Of a stretch of 39,999 bases of DNA, positions 6,153 to 36,144 are shown one piece after another. Each line of letters starts with the position of its first letter. Position 1 is the first letter of the stretch. Under the pieces are notes generated by a model. It saw nothing but the letters and a program-made list of their open reading frames with translations. It did not search any database and had not been told where the DNA came from. The position numbers were made by a program, and so were the translations under genes. The DNA comes from a virus. The stretch lies in the IMG/VR virus record IMGVR_UViG_3300047462_000774, positions 1-39,999 of that record; one strand, 5' to 3'.

Positions 6153-6847
6153 GGCACAATGAAGTAATCGAGGTTGTAGGTGTAGCCGTCGCTGATCGGC
6201 GCGGCTGAGAGATCGACGGTGAAACCCGACGACGTGAGCGTGCTGCCGCGCAGAGTAGCCCACAGGTTCAAGCCGTTCGGATCCGACTTTCGGATCACGA
6301 CAAAGACGTAGCTGGGCGTGAAGCCCAGGTTAAGCCCGGCAACTGTGACGAAATCTTGACCGACGGTGAGAGCCGTCGTTCCGGTGACAGGTTTATTCAG
6401 CACCTGGGCAACGCCGCTCGATGCCTTCCAGTCGCTATTGACCTGTGCGGCAGGAATCGTCGGCTTGTTGGTGAGATCACTATAGGACCCGCTCGTCGCC
6501 ACGGTGGCAAAGGACGGCTTGTTAAGGAGGTCGCTGTAGTTTCCGGTGGTGGCGACGGTTGCCAGGCTAAAAGTAAGAGCAGCCGCGGGAATGGTCCCGT
6601 TCGTGATGTTGGCTCCGTTGAGCGAGCTGCTCGGCGTGAGCGCGCCGGTGAGCACGTAAGTTTTTAACTGAAGCAGCGTCGCACCGTTGCTCGTATAGGA
6701 ACCTGGAGAGCCTTGGGTGATGTCGAGGATGTTCGTGTCGCCGAGGCTCGAGGCCGCCGGCAACTGCGACGTTTTCTGGGCCCACGCGCAAGGAATGCCA
6801 CACGCGAATGCAGCGGCAACGAGGAGAATTCTTTTCATGGCGATCAT
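6149..6847 (-). CDS. Tail-fibre-like protein with Sec signal peptide
   Basis: 232 aa, ATG start in a 4-base overlap. Residues 1-23 form a textbook signal peptide (basic MKRI, hydrophobic LLVAAAFACGI, cleavage-like AWA-Q); an internal ATG four codons in would also keep it. Two near-identical 17-residue repeats follow (LATVATTGNYSDLLNKP at 95-111 and FATVATSGSYSDLTNKP at 113-129), typical of phage tail-fibre shafts. The C-terminal ~80 residues are beta-rich. The repeats suggest a receptor-binding fibre or collar protein, but the export signal conflicts with cytoplasmic virion assembly. It may be a secreted or surface decoy-like protein built from fibre repeats. Confidence 0.65.
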   Translation of the reverse strand: MIAMKRILLVAAAFACGIPCAWAQKTSQLPAASSLGDTNILDITQGSPGSYTSNGATLLQLKTYVLTGALTPSSSLNGANITNGTIPAAALTFSLATVATTGNYSDLLNKPSFATVATSGSYSDLTNKPTIPAAQVNSDWKASSGVAQVLNKPVTGTTALTVGQDFVTVAGLNLGFTPSYVFVVIRKSDPNGLNLWATLRGSTLTSSGFTVDLSAAPISDGYTYNLDYFIVP

Positions 6848-12733: not shown

Positions 12734-13179
12734 GTCGCGCTCCTTTCATCCCGCCGGTTGCGGCGCAGCGCCCGCGACGAGATCGTCGGCGACGGCAGCT
12801 TCGGCGGCGTTACCTCTTCGGAAATAACCGCGGGAATCTCCACGCGAAAATCTCCGCGGGCGACCATCTTCAGGACGTCCATCGCGTCCTTCGCTTCCTG
12901 TTGCCGGGTCTCGGTGAAGAACCGTTTTCCGAGCGGAACCACGTTGCAAAACCGCTGCACGAAGATGCTGAGCGCGGCATCCATCAGCTTGTCCGGAAGT
13001 GTGCCCTCCGGGCCCAGGGGCACGTCATTCGGGACGAAGCCGCGCACGAAGTCCGTCACGCGCTGCAGCGTCGTAGCCACGATCGTGCCGGGCGTCGCCG
13101 ACTGCGCGGAGATCTGCGAGATCTCCGCCGCCGTCATGCGCGACTGCACATCGCTGAGTTGAAGTTGTACCCAGGCCAT
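12730..13179 (-). CDS. gp36-like head-tail connector (DUF1320 type)
   Basis: 149 aa, ATG start. It is mostly helical; the N-terminal part (LSDVQSRMTAAEISQISAQ, then IVATTLQRVTDFVRGFV, LPDKLMDAALSIFVQRFCNV) fits DUF1320/Mu gp36-type head completion proteins of about 140-150 aa. The C-terminal end is basic (SRALRRNRRDER). It directly follows the capsid gene across a hairpin, as gp36 follows the capsid gene in Mu. It probably forms part of the neck between portal and tail. Confidence 0.65.
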   Translation of the reverse strand: MAWVQLQLSDVQSRMTAAEISQISAQSATPGTIVATTLQRVTDFVRGFVPNDVPLGPEGTLPDKLMDAALSIFVQRFCNVVPLGKRFFTETRQQEAKDAMDVLKMVARGDFRVEIPAVISEEVTPPKLPSPTISSRALRRNRRDERSAT

Positions 13180-13231: not shown

Positions 13232-14251
13232 TTAGGGCGTGCCGGTGTTGGTCTTGATGCGGACCGCCGCCGTCGGGTTCGTCACCAGCGGAAGCGTGAT
13301 CCAATCCATCTTGGCGACCTGGCCGCGACCGTCGGGCCGGGTGTAGGTGCCCGGCTTGAAGAAGCCGGAGAACGGCGCGAACGTCTTCATGAAGGAGGCG
13401 TCCATCCGGTTCGGCGTCGGGTTGCAGGCGAACACCAGGATCTCGTGATCGAGGATGAAGTCGAGCGGGGCGCTCATGCCCGGTGTCGAGTTCGGATTGG
13501 CCGCGACTGTACCGAGCGCGCTGCTGTCCTCCACCATGTCGGCGCACATCAGCTCGGGCGAGCCCATGATCAGGCTCGAGAGCTGGCGCTCGCTCAGCGA
13601 ATACTGACCGAGGCTGCCCTCGGTCGAGTCGCCGACGATGAACTTCGAGCGGATGTTGCTGTTCCGCTTCAGGTCAAGAAACGCCCCGTTGCCCACCGCG
13701 ATGCGGATCGGCAGTCCCGGAGCCGCCAGCTTGATCGTGCGCACGGCCTGGTCGAGACCGTAGTTCGGATCGTTGATCGGGTCGTAGGTCGAAGCGACGG
13801 TACCGCCCGCGGTGTAATCGAGCGCCCACTCATTGGCCGTGGCAACGCCGTTGGTCGCGAGGTTGATCTGCTCAGCCTCGAGATCGAGCGCCGACGCATC
13901 GGAGAGCACGTCGATGCCTTCCATCATCATCCAGGAGACTTCCTGGTCGGTGAAGGCGTCGAACGAGGTGAGGTCGCGCATGGGCAAGTCGAGCGCGTGC
14001 GGGACCAGCTCCTGGTAGACGTCCGTGCCGCCGAAGTTGAGCTGAGTCACCTGACCCTGCACGTTGAACTTGGTGTTCGAGCGGCGGAAGCGGGCCCGCG
14101 CGTCGTAGACCTTGTAGTGGAAGCGCGCGCTTGCCACCTGGCAGAACGGCGCGATGAACATGCCCGTTTTCTTCAGAGTCTTGTGGCTCCGATCCTGGGC
14201 GTACCCGGTCACGAGCGGGCTGCTCGAGATTTGGGCGAGTGTGGATTCCAT
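13232..14251 (-). CDS. Major capsid protein
   Basis: 339 aa, ATG with an A-rich leader but no clear Shine-Dalgarno site. The sequence has the order usual for phage coat proteins of the HK97-fold class: N-terminal 'VTGYAQDRSHKTLKKTGMFI', then the strand-rich FHYKVYDARARFRR region, a LDLPMRDLTSFDAFTDQ helix, and later PLDFILDHEILVFACNP and a C-terminal RIKTNTG. Neighbours on both sides (decoration, connector) support it. It should assemble the shell around the scaffold and be trimmed by the upstream protease, if at all. Confidence 0.8.
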   Translation of the reverse strand: MESTLAQISSSPLVTGYAQDRSHKTLKKTGMFIAPFCQVASARFHYKVYDARARFRRSNTKFNVQGQVTQLNFGGTDVYQELVPHALDLPMRDLTSFDAFTDQEVSWMMMEGIDVLSDASALDLEAEQINLATNGVATANEWALDYTAGGTVASTYDPINDPNYGLDQAVRTIKLAAPGLPIRIAVGNGAFLDLKRNSNIRSKFIVGDSTEGSLGQYSLSERQLSSLIMGSPELMCADMVEDSSALGTVAANPNSTPGMSAPLDFILDHEILVFACNPTPNRMDASFMKTFAPFSGFFKPGTYTRPDGRGQVAKMDWITLPLVTNPTAAVRIKTNTGTP

Positions 14252-27876: not shown

Positions 27877-28007
27877 GCCGGTTCCTTGTGATGGTCTACA
27901 TGACCTTCAACCACTTCGACGTCCTCATAGGGTGTCTGTTGTTTGGGCTGCTCTTAGATTTTCTCATCGCGATGGCGTCATCGGAATCAAAGGAGACAAA
28001 GCCGTGA
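27873..28007 (+). CDS. Tiny membrane protein before the transposase
   Basis: 44 aa, ATG in a 4-base overlap. One hydrophobic segment (about 4-34, MVYMTFNHFDVLIGCLLFGL) and a charged C-terminus (SSESKETKP). Its end overlaps the transposase start. Possibly a superinfection-exclusion or membrane-damage peptide; function unknown. Confidence 0.5.
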   Translation: MSRFLVMVYMTFNHFDVLIGCLLFGLLLDFLIAMASSESKETKP

Positions 28008-30049
28008 GCGGCATGCCTCTCGCCCTGGCGGACACGCTCACCCACGCCGGCCTGCCGGCGGATGTGCGGCGCGAGGTGGACCTGCTTACACCGCTGATCA
28101 AGGCCGTGCTCGACGCTCCGCACGGTGCGAAGCGCGCGGCTGAGGAAAGCGCGGCACGTCAAATGACCGCCGCCGGATTCGAGATGACGCGGCACGCGAT
28201 CCGCGACCTGGTCTCGCACTACCGCCGCGAGGGATGGCGCGCCCTGATCGACGGCCGCAAGCTCGAGCACGAAGACAACAACCTGCCGGCGGCATTCAAG
28301 CAGGAGGTAAAACGCCGGTTCGAGAAACACGGGCGCTCGATCTCCCGCGCGCACGAGGACCTGCTGCGCGACTGGCGCGCCGGCAAGCCCATCCCTGGTT
28401 ACCCGAAGCATCCGAAGGCCCAGGACCACCATTCATATCCGCGGGGCTGGTCACTGAAGAACCTCGAGCGCGTGTGCAAAAGCAGCGCCTGGGAAAAGGC
28501 CGCTATGCGCGTCGGTCTCGGTCACGCGAACGCGAAGCATGGGGTGAAGCACTTCACCACCCGGGTCCATCTCTGGCACCTGTCGCACCTCATGCTCGAC
28601 GACGTCGATCACGACAACTTCGTCTACGTCGGCACCAAGAGCCAAGCCTGCCGCGTATCTCAACTCGGCGCGCTGGATGTCTTCTCCGGAAACTACTTCT
28701 GCCACGGCACGCATCCCCAGCTCAAGCGCTGGGATCCCAAGCAGGAGAAGTTCGTCACCGACAAACTCAAGGAGGCCAACACTCGCTTCCTAGTGGCGAT
28801 GCAGCTCTACGAGCACGGCTACAGCCCACTGGGCACTGAATACGTTGTCGAGCGCGCGACCGCCACCATCCGCGAGGAGACCGCGCGGATCCTGCACGAT
28901 CGCACCAAGGCCATCCATGGCGACCCGATGATCCGCGTGAACCTCGGCGGCTGGTCGGGTAAGCAGCAAGTAGTCGCCGGGATGTTCCTCGGCGACGGCG
29001 GCGGCAACCCGCGGCACAAGGCGCCGCTCGAGTCCTGGCACAACCTTTTGCACAACTGGCTCGGTGCCCTGCCAGGACAGACCGGCCCGGACGTGGCGCG
29101 CAGGCCCGAGCAGCTCGCCGGCCTGCTCAAGGCCAACGAGGAACTGATGCAGATCGCCAAGCAGCTCTCGCCCTGGGCTGCGAAGCAACTCAAGTTCCCC
29201 CTGCAGGAGTATTGGACGGAATTCATCCCGATCCTGGGCGAGACGATCAAGCTCATCAACGATCGGCGCACCCACAACCTCGAGGGTTGGTACGAGCTGA
29301 AGTTTCTGACCGATCAATATCGGTTCCATCGCGGGAGCGAGGAATGGCTGAGTCAGGAGCAATATCTCGCCCTGCCCGACTCCACCCAGGCGTGGCTGCG
29401 AGAAGAAGTCCGAAAGGACACGGCTTTGCACCGGCCCTCGAAGCTCAGCCCGTCAGACGTTTTCGCGATGAAGCGTGGCGGCGTGTGCCGGGCGTCAACG
29501 GCGATGATCGCCGAGATCCTCTACCGCGATCTGGCCACCGAGCGTCGGAGCCGCAACGGCTACTTCACGTTCGACGACCAGGAGGTTTCGCCAGAGGAAC
29601 TGCGTTACCACTCGCGGATCTGCACGCCCGACGGACGGCAGGAAGAATTGACCGGCGACAAGTACGACGTCGTGGTCAATCCCTTCCAGCCGCACCTCCT
29701 CTGGATTTACACCGGCAAGGGCGCATTCCTGGGCATCGCCCCCCGGGCGGAAAAGTCGAACCGGGCCGACGAGGACCAGACCAAGAAGAACCTCGCCTTC
29801 GAGCAGAAGCGCCTGCGCGACCTGGCCAAGCCGCTGAAGGAACGGCACGCCGACATCGCCCGCGACGAGGCCAATCGCCTCAAGCAAAACAATGACGTGC
29901 TCGCCTCCGGCCACACGACCGAGGCCGAGGCCCGCTTCGCCGATCACGAGGCCGCGCCAGTCCTATCTGAGTGCATCACCTCTGAAAGGCCGGTGCAGCC
30001 GGATTTCAACGAGGAGGAAGACCCGCTCGATCCCACCAAACTTTTATGA
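28004..30049 (+). CDS. Mu-type DDE transposase (MuA-like)
   Basis: 681 aa. Start GTG overlaps the previous stop (GTGA) with AGGAG 9 bases upstream; the frame extends upstream but lacks a site. It has an N-terminal HTH region (to ~190), an rve-type catalytic core, and a charged C-terminus with an acidic DLP-type end. Core marks: LMLDDVDHDNF (D199/D200), an EYVVERATATI segment at the second acid (E283), and KAPLESWHN (E343). Spacing from E283 to E343 (60) matches MuA (56). MuA cuts and joins phage ends to target DNA. The second acid is Glu, not Asp (see findings). The MuB-like gene follows. Confidence 0.85.
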   Translation: MSGMPLALADTLTHAGLPADVRREVDLLTPLIKAVLDAPHGAKRAAEESAARQMTAAGFEMTRHAIRDLVSHYRREGWRALIDGRKLEHEDNNLPAAFKQEVKRRFEKHGRSISRAHEDLLRDWRAGKPIPGYPKHPKAQDHHSYPRGWSLKNLERVCKSSAWEKAAMRVGLGHANAKHGVKHFTTRVHLWHLSHLMLDDVDHDNFVYVGTKSQACRVSQLGALDVFSGNYFCHGTHPQLKRWDPKQEKFVTDKLKEANTRFLVAMQLYEHGYSPLGTEYVVERATATIREETARILHDRTKAIHGDPMIRVNLGGWSGKQQVVAGMFLGDGGGNPRHKAPLESWHNLLHNWLGALPGQTGPDVARRPEQLAGLLKANEELMQIAKQLSPWAAKQLKFPLQEYWTEFIPILGETIKLINDRRTHNLEGWYELKFLTDQYRFHRGSEEWLSQEQYLALPDSTQAWLREEVRKDTALHRPSKLSPSDVFAMKRGGVCRASTAMIAEILYRDLATERRSRNGYFTFDDQEVSPEELRYHSRICTPDGRQEELTGDKYDVVVNPFQPHLLWIYTGKGAFLGIAPRAEKSNRADEDQTKKNLAFEQKRLRDLAKPLKERHADIARDEANRLKQNNDVLASGHTTEAEARFADHEAAPVLSECITSERPVQPDFNEEEDPLDPTKLL

Positions 30050-30246
30050 ACCAAAAAATCAAAGAAGCCCTGCAGGAGATGGATACGGCGCGCGCCAGTT
30101 TCAACCGCGCGTCGCAGAAACTGATGACGGCCATGCGTGAGCAGGCCGAGGAAAACGCGCGGGCGCTGGCGGAACTCCAGCAGCTCCAGGCCTCACTCAA
30201 GGAGGCGGCGGACAAGGCGGCCAAGATGACCGAGGTGGCAAAATGA
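30046..30246 (+). CDS. Short coiled-coil protein between transposase and MuB
   Basis: 66 aa, ATG in a 4-base overlap, stop overlapping the next start. The whole protein is one amphipathic coiled coil with heptad-like Leu/Ala spacing (LKEAADKAAKM). It may help the transposase and ATPase meet. No family recognised. Confidence 0.6.
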   Translation: MNQKIKEALQEMDTARASFNRASQKLMTAMREQAEENARALAELQQLQASLKEAADKAAKMTEVAK

Positions 30247-31436
30247 GCGAGCTGACCGACATCCTGCCGGCCACGGAGAACGCTCCCGTGGAGAACGACG
30301 CCACACCGATCCCCGCGCACAACCTCGGGGACACCGTCCGCGCGTCCTGGAACTTCTCGAAGCACCAGCTCGTCGCCAACATCGCCCACTGCTCGCCAGA
30401 GGGGAAGGAAGCGCTCGTCACAGCCTTCATGTGGTGCATCGATCCGATGCATCCGGTTCACCAGAAGGATTTCGCCGCGCGCGTTGGCTACTCGAGCAAC
30501 ACGGTCTGGAAAATTTTCCAAGGCAAGTACACTGCACCCGACGGCACGCGCCTCGACGTCCCCCGCAAGTTGATCGATGCCATCCGTAGTTTTCTCAAGC
30601 TCGAGGCGGAGCGATTCACTGGCGGCACGACCGACTTCGTCGAGACGCCCACTTACCGGCGCATCGCGGCGATCTGTGACCTCGCCCGGGAGAGCCAAAC
30701 CCCGGCGTTCATCATCGGTCCGTCCCACTGCGGCAAGACCACGGGTCTTCGCCAGTACGTCAGCGCCAACAATCACGGCCGCTCCGTATATTGCCGCATT
30801 CCCGCGGCTTCCGGCGTGACCGGCTTGCTCCGCGTGATCGCGACCGCCGTCGGCGTCAGCGACAACAACAACGAGGTGAACCTGCGTCGCTACATCAAGC
30901 GCGCGATCACCCGCGACATGCTCGTTGCCCTCGATGAGGTGCACCAGCTCAGTTACACCTATCAAAAATCGAGCTTCTTCAAGGCGCTCGAAGTCATCCG
31001 GGAGGTGTATGACGAAACGCGGTGTGGCATGGTGTTGTGCGGAACCAAGCTGCTCCTGGAGAAGATCGAGGGCGCGAAGAACGCCGAGCTGGAGCAGCTC
31101 TTCAACCGCGGTACGCACCGGTTGAATCTCGGTAACTCCCCGACGCCGTCGGATCTGAAGGCGATCCTCACCGCTAACCATCTCGAGTTCCCGGACCGCT
31201 CGCTCGAGCTGGAGGTCGTTCCCGCTACCAAGCGTAGTCCCGCGGTCATCGACAATCCATACGACGTGCTGCGTCAGCTCGCCACCACGACGCGCCTAAA
31301 GGCCGTAACGGAGCGCCTGCGCTATGCGCGGAAACTGGCGACCAAAGATGAGGCACCCGTCTCGTGGACCCACTTCCTTATGGCGCACCACATGATCAAG
31401 CGGAACGAGGACGAGAGCCCGGAGACGTGGTCATGA
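30243..31436 (+). CDS. MuB-like AAA+ target-DNA ATPase
   Basis: 397 aa, ATG in a 4-base overlap. Walker A GPSHCGKT at 159-166 (Lys 165), Walker B LVALDEVHQ with D231/E232; helical N-terminus with an HTH-like segment (AARVGYSSNTVWKIFQG, about 79-95) and a C-terminal AAA lid. MuB binds target DNA with ATP, brings it to MuA and protects phage DNA from self-insertion. The pairing with the transposase is the standard Mu layout. It is longer than Mu's MuB (312 aa). Confidence 0.85.
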   Translation: MSELTDILPATENAPVENDATPIPAHNLGDTVRASWNFSKHQLVANIAHCSPEGKEALVTAFMWCIDPMHPVHQKDFAARVGYSSNTVWKIFQGKYTAPDGTRLDVPRKLIDAIRSFLKLEAERFTGGTTDFVETPTYRRIAAICDLARESQTPAFIIGPSHCGKTTGLRQYVSANNHGRSVYCRIPAASGVTGLLRVIATAVGVSDNNNEVNLRRYIKRAITRDMLVALDEVHQLSYTYQKSSFFKALEVIREVYDETRCGMVLCGTKLLLEKIEGAKNAELEQLFNRGTHRLNLGNSPTPSDLKAILTANHLEFPDRSLELEVVPATKRSPAVIDNPYDVLRQLATTTRLKAVTERLRYARKLATKDEAPVSWTHFLMAHHMIKRNEDESPETWS

Positions 31437-33391: not shown

Positions 33392-34812
33392 TTATGCCGG
33401 ATAAAAAAAGCACCAAGAAAGCGAAGCCGTCGGTCAGCGTCCTCTACTCATTCGACTCCGAAAAGGCCGTCCTCGGCTGCATGCTGGCGCAGCCATACGA
33501 GGTTATTAACGACGCGAGTGTCGCTCTGCGAAAGGAAGACTTCTTCGTCCCCGCGCACCAAGAGATTTTCGCGGCCCTCCTGGAGATGCGCGACAAGCAG
33601 ATTGCGATCGACGTCATGACCGTCCACGAATGGCTCACCGATCACAAACTGGAGAAAGCCTGTGGATCTCCGGGGATCCTCGCCGAACTGCTCGTCGGCT
33701 TCGCGACTCACCTGAACGTCGGCTCTTACATCCAATTCGTTAAGGCAAAGGCGCTCCTGCGCGCGATGAACACGGCCTGCAGCACGATCGTCCAGGACAT
33801 CTTCGAGCACACCGATTCCGTCGCGTCGGTGCTCGATCGCGCGGAGACCGCGATCTTCGCCGTCACCAACATGGGCCTCACCAACACGACGGTGCCGGCC
33901 AGTGAGGAGATTGAGAAGGCGCTCGGGCTAATTGACGCGATGCAGTCGCGCAAAGGCCACCTGCAGGGAATCCCGACAGGCTTCCATCGCCTCGACGAGC
34001 TGACTGCCGGCTGGAAGCCGGGCGAGATGATCGTGGTCGCGGCCCGGCCCGGACAGGGAAAGACAGCGCTGGCGATGACCTTTGCGCGGCACGCGGTCCT
34101 CCAGCGCTACGACGACGCGAACGACACTTGGGTAAAGCCCGGGCATCCCGCCGGGATGTTCTCGCTCGAGATGACCAATGAGCAGCTCATGCTGCGCTTG
34201 CTGGCCACGTGCGGCAGCGAGAGCCTGAGCAAAATCCGATCGGGCACGCTCACCGCGGACGAGTTGGCGAAGCTTCGCATCGTCGCCGGCGAGATGAAGG
34301 AGTGGCCTCTCTTCCTGGATGACTCTTCTTTCCTGACGATCAACCAGCTCCGCGGGAAAGCCCGCCGGATGAAGGACCGGTACAGCATCGAGCTGCTCAT
34401 CGTCGATTACCTACAGCTTCTCCGATCGGAATCCGAGCAGGCGAAGGACAATCGACAAAACGAGGTTGCGGAAATTTCCCGCGGCATCAAGGCGCTCGCG
34501 AAGGAGCTGTCGATCCCCATCATCATCCTCGCCCAGCTCAACCGCAAAAGCGAAGAGGGCAAGTCCGAGCCGGCGCTGCACAACCTGCGCGAGAGCGGCG
34601 CCATCGAGCAGGACGCTGATGTCGTCATGCTGCTGCATCGCCCGGAGCAGGAGCAGCCGCTACCGGGTGACCAGCCCACGCCAATCATCCCGTATCGCCT
34701 CAACGTGGCGAAGCAGCGCAACGGCCCGACCGACGTCTTGGAGATTCTTTTCCACGCCGCCTACACCCGGTTCGACGACCCGGTGCGGCACGAAACGAGG
34801 ACGCGGACATGA
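33388..34812 (+). CDS. dnaB-like: Replicative DNA helicase, DnaB type
   Basis: 474 aa from GTG (GTGA overlap, GGAG 8 bases upstream); an ATG two codons later is also possible. N-terminal DnaB domain (SEKAVLGCMLAQPYEVINDA, about 22-41), then RecA-like core: Walker A GQGKT (222-226), FSLEM strand, Walker B IVDYLQLL (D340), and AQLNRKSE near 379. It unwinds DNA ahead of the fork. Mu itself borrows host DnaB, so a phage copy next to MuA/MuB is unusual. The two genes that follow may be its loader or partners. Confidence 0.9.
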   Translation: MIMPDKKSTKKAKPSVSVLYSFDSEKAVLGCMLAQPYEVINDASVALRKEDFFVPAHQEIFAALLEMRDKQIAIDVMTVHEWLTDHKLEKACGSPGILAELLVGFATHLNVGSYIQFVKAKALLRAMNTACSTIVQDIFEHTDSVASVLDRAETAIFAVTNMGLTNTTVPASEEIEKALGLIDAMQSRKGHLQGIPTGFHRLDELTAGWKPGEMIVVAARPGQGKTALAMTFARHAVLQRYDDANDTWVKPGHPAGMFSLEMTNEQLMLRLLATCGSESLSKIRSGTLTADELAKLRIVAGEMKEWPLFLDDSSFLTINQLRGKARRMKDRYSIELLIVDYLQLLRSESEQAKDNRQNEVAEISRGIKALAKELSIPIIILAQLNRKSEEGKSEPALHNLRESGAIEQDADVVMLLHRPEQEQPLPGDQPTPIIPYRLNVAKQRNGPTDVLEILFHAAYTRFDDPVRHETRTRT

Positions 34813-35370: not shown

Positions 35371-36144
35371 ATGCCAGCCACCATCGAAGCCCCGAAGAAG
35401 AACCCCAACCTGACCGGCCTCCGCGCCTACCACGGCGATGCGAAGCTGCAAAAGGAAGTCATCGCCCGCGTGCGCAAGCACCAGGAACTGGACCAGATTC
35501 GCCAGCTCGCGACCGGCGGCGACAACAAGTTTTGCGCCGTCGCCTGCGCATTCGATCACTACAGCCACTCCCATGTCGCCCGCGAGATGGAGATACCGTG
35601 CTCGCTGGTTTACGCCAACGAGAACGTGTTCGAGGGCTGCTCCGACAAGACCTTCATTAAGGAGTGGCCGCTGCGGTTTGTCAACGCGCCACGCCTGGGC
35701 GCAGACCTGAGCCTGGTGCCGCACCAGCTCTACGTTTGGCTCATGGCCGGCGAGGACAGCCCGTACCTGCAGATCATCAAAAACAAGGAGACGCTCGAGT
35801 TGATGGCCGAGGGCGCCGCGATCATGCAGAAGTACGTGGACGGTATCGTCGTGGATTCCGATCAGTGGCCAGCTCTGTCTGAGCGCGCTCGCGAAGCGAG
35901 CGCCCGCGCAGAAACCGAGTACTGGGACGCCCTCCGCGACCTCCGCGACCTCCGCGACCTCCGCGACCTCAGCGACCTCAGCGACCTCAGCGACCTCCGC
36001 GACCTCCGCGACCTCCGCGACCTCCGCGACCTCCGCGACCTCAGCGACCTCAGCGACCTCAGCGACCAACTCCGGTCGAAGTTTTTGCCCCAGACGGGGC
36101 AAAAACTCCTGCAGCTCATGGCCGCCGCTCCGGTGGAGAAGTAA
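35371..36144 (+). CDS. Protein with C-terminal LRD/LSD tripeptide repeat tract
   Basis: 257 aa, ATG with AAGGAA 6 bases upstream. Residues 1-180 are a mixed-fold domain (FCAVACAFDHYSHSHVAREM about 54-73; ADLSLVPHQLYVWLMAG) that reminds me of unnamed bacterial and phage proteins. Residues 188-232 are exactly fifteen tripeptides, LRD x4, LSD x3, LRD x5, LSD x3, each coded by a 9-base unit. The tract would form a charged helix or spacer. After it come QLRSKFLPQTGQKLLQLMA. Function unknown; tract length may vary between isolates without breaking the frame. Confidence 0.7.
   Translation: MPATIEAPKKNPNLTGLRAYHGDAKLQKEVIARVRKHQELDQIRQLATGGDNKFCAVACAFDHYSHSHVAREMEIPCSLVYANENVFEGCSDKTFIKEWPLRFVNAPRLGADLSLVPHQLYVWLMAGEDSPYLQIIKNKETLELMAEGAAIMQKYVDGIVVDSDQWPALSERAREASARAETEYWDALRDLRDLRDLRDLSDLSDLSDLRDLRDLRDLRDLRDLSDLSDLSDQLRSKFLPQTGQKLLQLMAAAPVEK
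35932..36066 (+). repeat. 15 x 9-bp codon-aligned tandem repeat
   Basis: Units CTCCGCGAC and CTCAGCGAC differ at two bases and are arranged 4-3-5-3. No other bases vary, so the array is very young or kept uniform. All units stay in frame. Confidence 0.9.
36081..36106. repeat. Perfect 11-bp inverted repeat after the array
   Basis: GTTTTTGCCCC and its exact complement flank a 4-base AGAC loop. It lies inside the coding region 15 bases after the repeat. No T-run follows, but it would form a strong hairpin on either strand. Confidence 0.7.

What the first reader, a model, noticed from the sequence alone, without database searches (positions are those of the whole stretch)
35932..36066. Perfect 9-bp repeat that builds an LRD/LSD helix in blocks of 4-3-5-3
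Fifteen units, two kinds only, no drift within a kind. The order (LRD)n-(LSD)3 appears twice, which suggests duplication of a larger block as well as single units. Since 9 is a multiple of three, changes in copy number alter length, not frame. It may act as an adjustable spacer or charged rod, or be an expanding DNA repeat.
Basis: seen in the sequence. Interest (0 to 1): 0.65.

Follow-up and report, generated by a model that had tools for sequence, protein, structure and literature searches.

The report
Hairpin-framed repeat tail in phage protein
A phage gene carries 15 perfect 9-base repeats that encode a repetitive protein tail; in two related phages the same spot holds quite different repeats, once in an unrelated gene, yet in all three the repeats lie between two DNA hairpins, which suggests a module that keeps remaking protein tails.

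Summary
Window 35932-36066 holds 15 perfect 9-bp units, CTCCGCGAC (LRD) or CTCAGCGAC (LSD), in the order 4-3-5-3. They lie inside a real gene (35371-36144, 257 aa). Its N-terminal domain belongs to an uncharacterised phage family (profile match 59.8 bits, E = 5.5e-18). Relatives carry other short repeats at the same place (SAAx, AAY/AAD, LSA/LRA), in different numbers, so the array is a variable coding tail.

The larger finding lies outside the given coordinates. In the window phage and two phages with 71-74% identical DnaB, the array is framed by two perfect stem-loops inside the reading frame: 5' with a 3-nt GAA/TTC loop, 3' with a 4-nt loop. The slot after DnaB carries LRD/LSD repeats (window), Ala/Tyr/Asp repeats in the same gene (L109), or QLRD/QLWD repeats in an unrelated DUF6745 gene (L107), each between such stem-loops. 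Of 89 tandem arrays in 1.28 Mb, only these three are framed. The 3' stem keeps pairing through three compensatory changes between window and L109.

Best reading: a hairpin-bounded, slippage-prone repeat module that diversifies a helical protein tail. Architecture shown; mechanism inferred. No reverse transcriptase or template repeat was found, so it is not filed as a DGR.

The parts
33394..34812 (+). DnaB-like replicative helicase gene, upstream anchor of the slot
   Evidence: Pfam DnaB_C E 2.5e-83; 71-74% identical in L107, L108, L109
34809..35351 (+). small gene of unknown function between DnaB and the repeat gene; homologue in L107
   Evidence: ORF; 47% identity over 173 aa to L107
35371..36144 (+). 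repeat gene, 257 aa: N-terminal domain, repeat tail, C-terminal cap
   Evidence: ORF; family profile built without it scores 59.8 bits, E 5.5e-18
35422..35856 (+). conserved all-helical N-terminal domain (CxVxC...H motif); no Pfam or NCBIfam family above cut-off
   Evidence: alignments; AlphaFold2; Pfam, NCBIfam
35885..35903 (+). 5' stem-loop GCGCTCGC-gaa-GCGAGCGC, 8-bp stem, 3-nt loop, 28 bp before the array
35932..35967 (+). array block 1: (CTCCGCGAC)4 = (LRD)4
35968..35994 (+). array block 2: (CTCAGCGAC)3 = (LSD)3; AlphaFold2 breaks the helix here
35995..36039 (+). array block 3: (CTCCGCGAC)5 = (LRD)5
36040..36066 (+). array block 4: (CTCAGCGAC)3 = (LSD)3
36067..36141 (+). C-terminal cap (QLRSKFLPQTGQKLLQLMAAAPVEK); its LMAAAPV end is conserved in L078 and L109 although the repeats differ
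   Evidence: alignment; L109
36080..36107 (+). 3' stem-loop AGTTTTTGCCCC-agac-GGGGCAAAAACT, 12-bp stem, 4-nt loop, 13 bp after the array; longest perfect stem found in the window
   Evidence: three compensatory pairs against L109
36157..37101 (+). HNH endonuclease gene just downstream (not seen next to the repeat gene in L109)
   Evidence: Pfam HNH_3 E 3.5e-9

Best explanation
The array is the C-terminal tail of a phage accessory protein, and it is a fast-changing coding minisatellite. Shown: a conserved helical N-terminal domain and a conserved C-terminal cap enclose a repeat stretch whose unit type and number differ between relatives, while the frame is always kept. Shown: in this phage lineage the stretch lies between two perfect stem-loops inside the gene, in the slot after DnaB, and the same layout occurs there with another repeat in the same gene (L109) and with a third repeat in an unrelated DUF6745 gene (L107). 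Inferred: when DNA is single-stranded during replication the stem-loops fold, pause or realign the polymerase, and so promote in-frame gain, loss and homogenisation of units between them, while the sequences outside stay intact. Inferred: the product is a solvent-exposed helical protrusion of adjustable length and composition on an early phage protein, which lets the phage vary a binding or evasion surface quickly.
For: Family membership of the window protein: E 5.5e-18, no decoy among 365 window ORFs below E 1. Repeat tails of other kinds at the same place in relatives. In close pairs the tail carries many indels where the N-terminal part has none or few (L085/L086 94.5% identical without indels in the N-part; L083/L014). 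No synonymous difference inside arrays: window 0 of 6, L078 0 of 21, L029 0 of 32, L107 none in 26 full units, L109 46 of 46 Ala codons GCC against 5 of 22 outside: recent homogenisation at the DNA level. Stem-loops: of 89 tandem arrays in 1.28 Mb only window, L107 and L109 have perfect stems (8 bp or more, loop 3-5) within 70 bp on both sides; background 0.109 per kb. 5' loops are GAA, TTC, GAA; only 4 of 25 loop-3 stems of 8 bp or more in 888 kb have these loops and three are these. 3' stem: all 12 pairs kept, three changed on both sides, none broken, window against L109, at matching codons. The slot is syntenic: DnaB 71-74% identical, and the next gene 47% identical to L107.
Against: Only three phages show the complete layout, and they are related. 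L078, with the most similar array, has only the 5' stem-loop; L029 and the Xanthomonas-phage members have repeats without both. DUF6745 genes elsewhere have repeats without stem-loops (L190, L195). So stem-loops are not needed for a repeat tail to arise. The stems could act in the mRNA. No copy-number variant of the same phage was seen: L028, L029 and L031 have identical 33-unit arrays, which argues against very fast change. The function of the protein is unknown and no solved structure matches.
Confidence: 0.5

Rival explanations
1. Ordinary slippage minisatellite in a tolerant protein tail. The stem-loops have a separate role (mRNA stability or translation) or none, and did not cause the repeat.
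For: Many repeat tails lack stem-loops. The same 9-mer forms sporadic arrays in other genomes, in several frames and between genes (34 loci). DUF6745 members with and without repeats exist.
Against: Framing by two stems in all three sister phages with a complete slot, with loop sizes 3 and 4 in the same order and different stem sequences, is not expected by chance.
Confidence: 0.33
2. A diversity-generating retroelement or another reverse-transcriptase system writes the tail; the 3' hairpin marks its target.
For: DGR targets have a 7-10 bp GC-rich hairpin with a 4-nt loop 4-34 bp after the variable region, structure kept while stem sequence differs (PMC3240598); the 3' stem-loops here resemble it.
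Against: No reverse transcriptase (PF00078) in the records of window, L107, L108, L109; no second copy of the region in the window; loops AGAC, TGGC, ATGA are not GRNA; changes are not spread over all four bases at adenines.
Confidence: 0.04
3. The repeat is a set of iterons and the stem-loops are part of a replication origin placed inside a gene next to the helicase gene, as in the O gene of lambda (the comparison is from general knowledge).
For: Direct repeats and hairpins beside dnaB.
Against: Unit sequence and length (9, 3 and 12 bp) change completely between sister phages, every unit is a multiple of three and in frame, and no A+T-rich stretch adjoins it.
Confidence: 0.05
4. The array DNA itself moves between unrelated genes: the window, L078 and the L029 group received units from a common pool.
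For: The window array, L078 and L029 share the unit CTC[A/C]GCG[A/C]C with the same A/C alternatives, although the N-terminal domains are 26% identical or unrelated; a similar, drifted array sits in an A+T-rich NACHT NTPase gene (L032).
Against: No shared DNA flanks the arrays; the unit also occurs in other frames in many genomes, so repeated independent origin is possible. The window's closest phages carry other units.
Confidence: 0.15
5. Assembly artefact in copy number: short reads collapsed or expanded the array.
For: Related contigs stop at or inside such arrays (L092 inside, L108 just before).
Against: Two unit types in an irregular order, intact frame and conserved cap; the L029-type array is identical in three assemblies. 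The exact number 15 stays unverified.
Confidence: 0.05

Closest known systems
DUF6745 (PF20530) proteins with QLxD / SSLx repeats
   Same: Short in-frame 12-bp repeats between conserved parts; one occupies the same slot in L107, also between two stem-loops.
   Different: Unrelated protein; members elsewhere have repeats without stem-loops or no repeats at all.
DGR target sites (Bordetella phage BPP-1 mtd)
   Same: A hairpin or cruciform with a 4-nt loop just 3' of a variable coding stretch, structure kept while the stem sequence changes.
   Different: Here a tandem repeat instead of adenine-mutated codons, a second hairpin on the 5' side, no GRNA loop, no reverse transcriptase and no template repeat found.
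Type I restriction HsdS spacer repeats (TAEL) and other contingency loci (from general knowledge)
   Same: In-frame coding repeats whose number sets the length of a helical spacer.
   Different: Here 15 to 33 units, changing unit class, near the C-terminus, and framed by stem-loops.
Xanthomonas phage family (XapPhi1-6, KPhi1, phiXaf18) with SAAx tails
   Same: Same N-terminal domain family with a repeat tail and a short cap.
   Different: 12/9-bp Ala/Ser repeats; no pair of strong stem-loops.

Membership tests
Uncharacterised phage domain family (XapPhi/KPhi1 type) with repeat tail | Homologous N-terminal domain | tested here: met
   Profile without the window protein: 59.8 bits, E 5.5e-18
Uncharacterised phage domain family (XapPhi/KPhi1 type) with repeat tail | Short-period repeat tail after the domain, followed by a cap | tested here: met
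Diversity-generating retroelement target | Hairpin with 7-10 bp GC-rich stem and 4-nt loop shortly 3' of the variable region | tested here: inconclusive
   12-bp stem with an A/T-rich outer half and 4-nt loop, 13 bp after the array
Diversity-generating retroelement target | GRNA loop in the sense strand | tested here: not met
   Loops AGAC, TGGC, ATGA
Diversity-generating retroelement target | Reverse transcriptase in the element | tested here: not met
   PF00078: none in window, L107, L108, L109 records; records may be fragments
Diversity-generating retroelement target | Template repeat | tested here: not met
   No second copy in the 40-kb window
DUF6745 | PF20530 match | tested here: not met
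   Window protein has no Pfam match above cut-off; L107 slot protein matches at 1.3e-11
Slippage contingency locus | Copy-number variation within one population or strain | not testable with these tools
   No reads; variation seen only between distinct phages
Slippage contingency locus | In-frame repeat with homogenised units | tested here: met

The most novel reading that the evidence does not exclude
A dedicated diversification module: two DNA stem-loops, 5' with a GAA-type triloop and 3' with a 4-nt loop, bound a coding stretch in which tandem repeats are created, exchanged and homogenised without a reverse transcriptase. It keeps one phage slot supplied with ever-changing helical tails, even when the gene that hosts it is replaced.
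Probability: 0.27. Interest if true: 0.88.

Novelty: new variant of a known kind. Interest (0 to 1): 0.62.

Why it matters
How repetitive protein tails in phages are made and kept in frame is open. If hairpins around the repeat drive the change, the locus is a simple system in which the cause of repeat expansion can be tested by breaking and restoring stems. It would also be a way for a phage to diversify a protein without a retroelement, and a sequence signature (stem-loop, coding array, stem-loop) to search for elsewhere.

Tried and rejected
Close relatives by single-protein scans of viral and cellular contigs: none; tblastn in phage and plasmid collections: none; neighbour ParB-like protein: none. 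A query written from memory of the family found the Xanthomonas-phage relatives, and the family was then rebuilt from real sequences. An alignment of too distant members could not be used for a scan. Weak hits in proteobacterial genomes at E about 1e-7 (L088, L089) were not used; only L087 was clear; none in 385 Alphaproteobacteria. The 9-mer pattern in 398 proteobacterial genomes occurred only in the genome chosen for having it, so arrays of this unit are rare. Fold search in PDB: no match, best E 1.1 and VIA Z 4.9, below what unrelated helical models reach; one family member in BFVD, A0A6J5QCR4, E 8e-9. Defence-system models: nothing convincing. The 3' stem-loop as a terminator: rejected, it is followed by A, not T, on both strands. 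Reverse-transcriptase origin: not supported. A degenerate pattern search was uninformative. Papers with the repeat peptides, DUF6745, or hairpin-framed repeats in phage genes: none relevant found. The 5' stem-loop pair count is not independent evidence, because the three stems were aligned by their own structure and one lies in another gene.

Full report
Observation. The array is exactly as described: 15 units of 9 bp, two kinds, order 4-3-5-3, at 35932-36066. It is by far the strongest tandem repeat of the window and cannot be chance. The window is a virus record of 39,999 bases. It encodes head and tail proteins, a transposase-like protein with a TniB/MuB-like ATPase, and a DnaB helicase.

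The gene. The array lies in frame in 35371-36144. General family libraries give no name. Relatives were found step by step, and a profile built without the window protein recognises it at E = 5.5e-18, with no other window ORF below E = 1. Members have a domain of about 160 residues and nearly all then a repetitive tail: SAAx/SAx in Xanthomonas phages, AAW/DAW, AAY/AAD, or LSA/LSD/LRA/LRD. Two replicon-borne relatives beside thioredoxin genes (L017, L018) lack it. The closest tail is in L078: 29 units of CTC[A/C]GCG[A/C]C (two of them with one other base), and the cap ends in LMAAAPV as in the window.

The same unit elsewhere. An unrelated phage protein (L028, L029, L031: identical in three metagenomes) has 33 such units. 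Thirty-four loci in about 85,000 genomes hold four or more tandem units, in several frames and also outside genes, and none was found in 397 other proteobacteria drawn from the phylum. One lies in a NACHT NTPase of an A+T-rich genome. Whether these arrays share an origin is open.

Variation. Inside five arrays there is not one synonymous difference, while one to three positions per unit vary in amino-acid-changing ways. Cells are not independent events, so this is a sign of homogenisation rather than a test of selection. In pairs of relatives the tails differ by indels much more than the N-terminal part (the L086 tail is cut by its contig end).

Sister phages. A DnaB scan gave three phages with 71-74% identical DnaB. 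In L109 the gene after DnaB is the same gene with a tail of GCC, TAC and GAC codons and the same cap. In L108 it is the same gene, but the contig stops before the tail. In L107 the slot holds a DUF6745 protein with 26 units of CTC[A/T/G]GGG[A/G]CCAG. L107 has no copy of the window gene in its record.

The frame of stem-loops. In the window, L109 and L107 the array is preceded by a perfect stem with a 3-nt loop (8, 10, 10 bp; GAA, TTC, GAA) and followed by a perfect stem with a 4-nt loop (12, 12, 9 bp), all inside the reading frame. In 1.28 Mb of fetched DNA, 89 tandem arrays were tested and only these three have both stems. Background stems are 0.109 per kb, so a stem in a 75-bp flank has a chance of about 0.008 and both sides about 7e-5 per array; this estimate is post hoc, since the stems were first noticed beside the window array, but L109 and L107 were independent checks. 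In the loci of this lineage only four other GAA or TTC triloop stems of 5 bp or more exist, all with 5-6 bp. The GAA triloop closed by C-G is known from general knowledge as an unusually stable DNA hairpin. Between window and L109 the 3' stem keeps all 12 pairs with three compensatory changes, at matching codons, while the amino acids change; with two sequences the shuffle control alone is weak (61 of 500). L078 has only a strong 5' stem, and L069 has weaker ones on both sides; other members have neither or one weak stem. DUF6745 genes elsewhere have repeats without stems or no repeats. The stem-loops therefore belong to the locus of this phage lineage, not to a protein family.

Protein. AlphaFold2 gives a confident helical N-terminal domain and a confident C-terminal helix (pLDDT 81-94) around a repeat of low confidence (46-67) with a break at the first LSD block; a SAAx member gives one long helix with the same dip in the middle. 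With leucine every third residue no continuous stripe forms on an alpha-helix, so a classical coiled coil is unlikely (inference). The repeat looks like a protrusion between two anchored helices.

Mechanism. Shown: coding tail, variable class and number, homogenised units, framing stem-loops, slot shared by unrelated genes. Inferred: hairpins in single-stranded DNA promote slippage between them, and the tail serves as a quickly changing surface. The 3' hairpin resembles the one that marks DGR targets, but no reverse transcriptase, template repeat or GRNA loop was found, so it may work in a similar way but is not filed there.

Verdict. The array alone is a coding minisatellite of a known kind. 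The stem-loop, array, stem-loop layout, kept while repeat class and even host gene change, is unexpected and testable.

Noticed in passing
window 27932-31436 (+): Transposase-like protein (phrog_310) followed by a TniB/MuB-like ATPase, which suggests a Mu-like transposable phage that also encodes its own DnaB.
   Followed up: partly
L032:348-2828 (-): NACHT NTPase of an acidobacterial MAG with a C-terminal LRD/LSD/LRY/LSY tail of the same 9-mer, with synonymous drift, in an A+T-rich gene.
   Followed up: partly
L029:4422-5297 (+): Second phage protein with no Pfam match and an unrelated N-terminal domain that ends in 33 LRD/LSD/LRA/LSA units; identical in three metagenomes.
   Followed up: yes
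L107:7993-9174 (+): DUF6745 protein with 26 QLRD/QLWD/QLGD/QLGG units between two perfect stem-loops, in the slot of the window's repeat gene.
   Followed up: yes
L036, L043, L050, L057, L059 and others: The same 9-mer on the opposite strand gives VAEVAEVAE linkers in unrelated bacterial proteins; the arrays recur sporadically across phyla.
   Followed up: partly
window 13106-13128 and 13606-13625: Two further perfect stems (10 bp with 3-nt loop, 8 bp with 4-nt loop) in and just after the major head protein gene.
   Followed up: no
L017 and L018: Relatives of the N-terminal domain without repeats or Cys motif lie next to thioredoxin genes on Sphingomonas and Novosphingobium replicons.
   Followed up: no
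L062, 5' of the array at 6658-6781: Perfect inverted repeat with 28-bp arms and a 3-nt loop just before an array of the CTGCGCGAC type in Promicromonospora.
   Followed up: no
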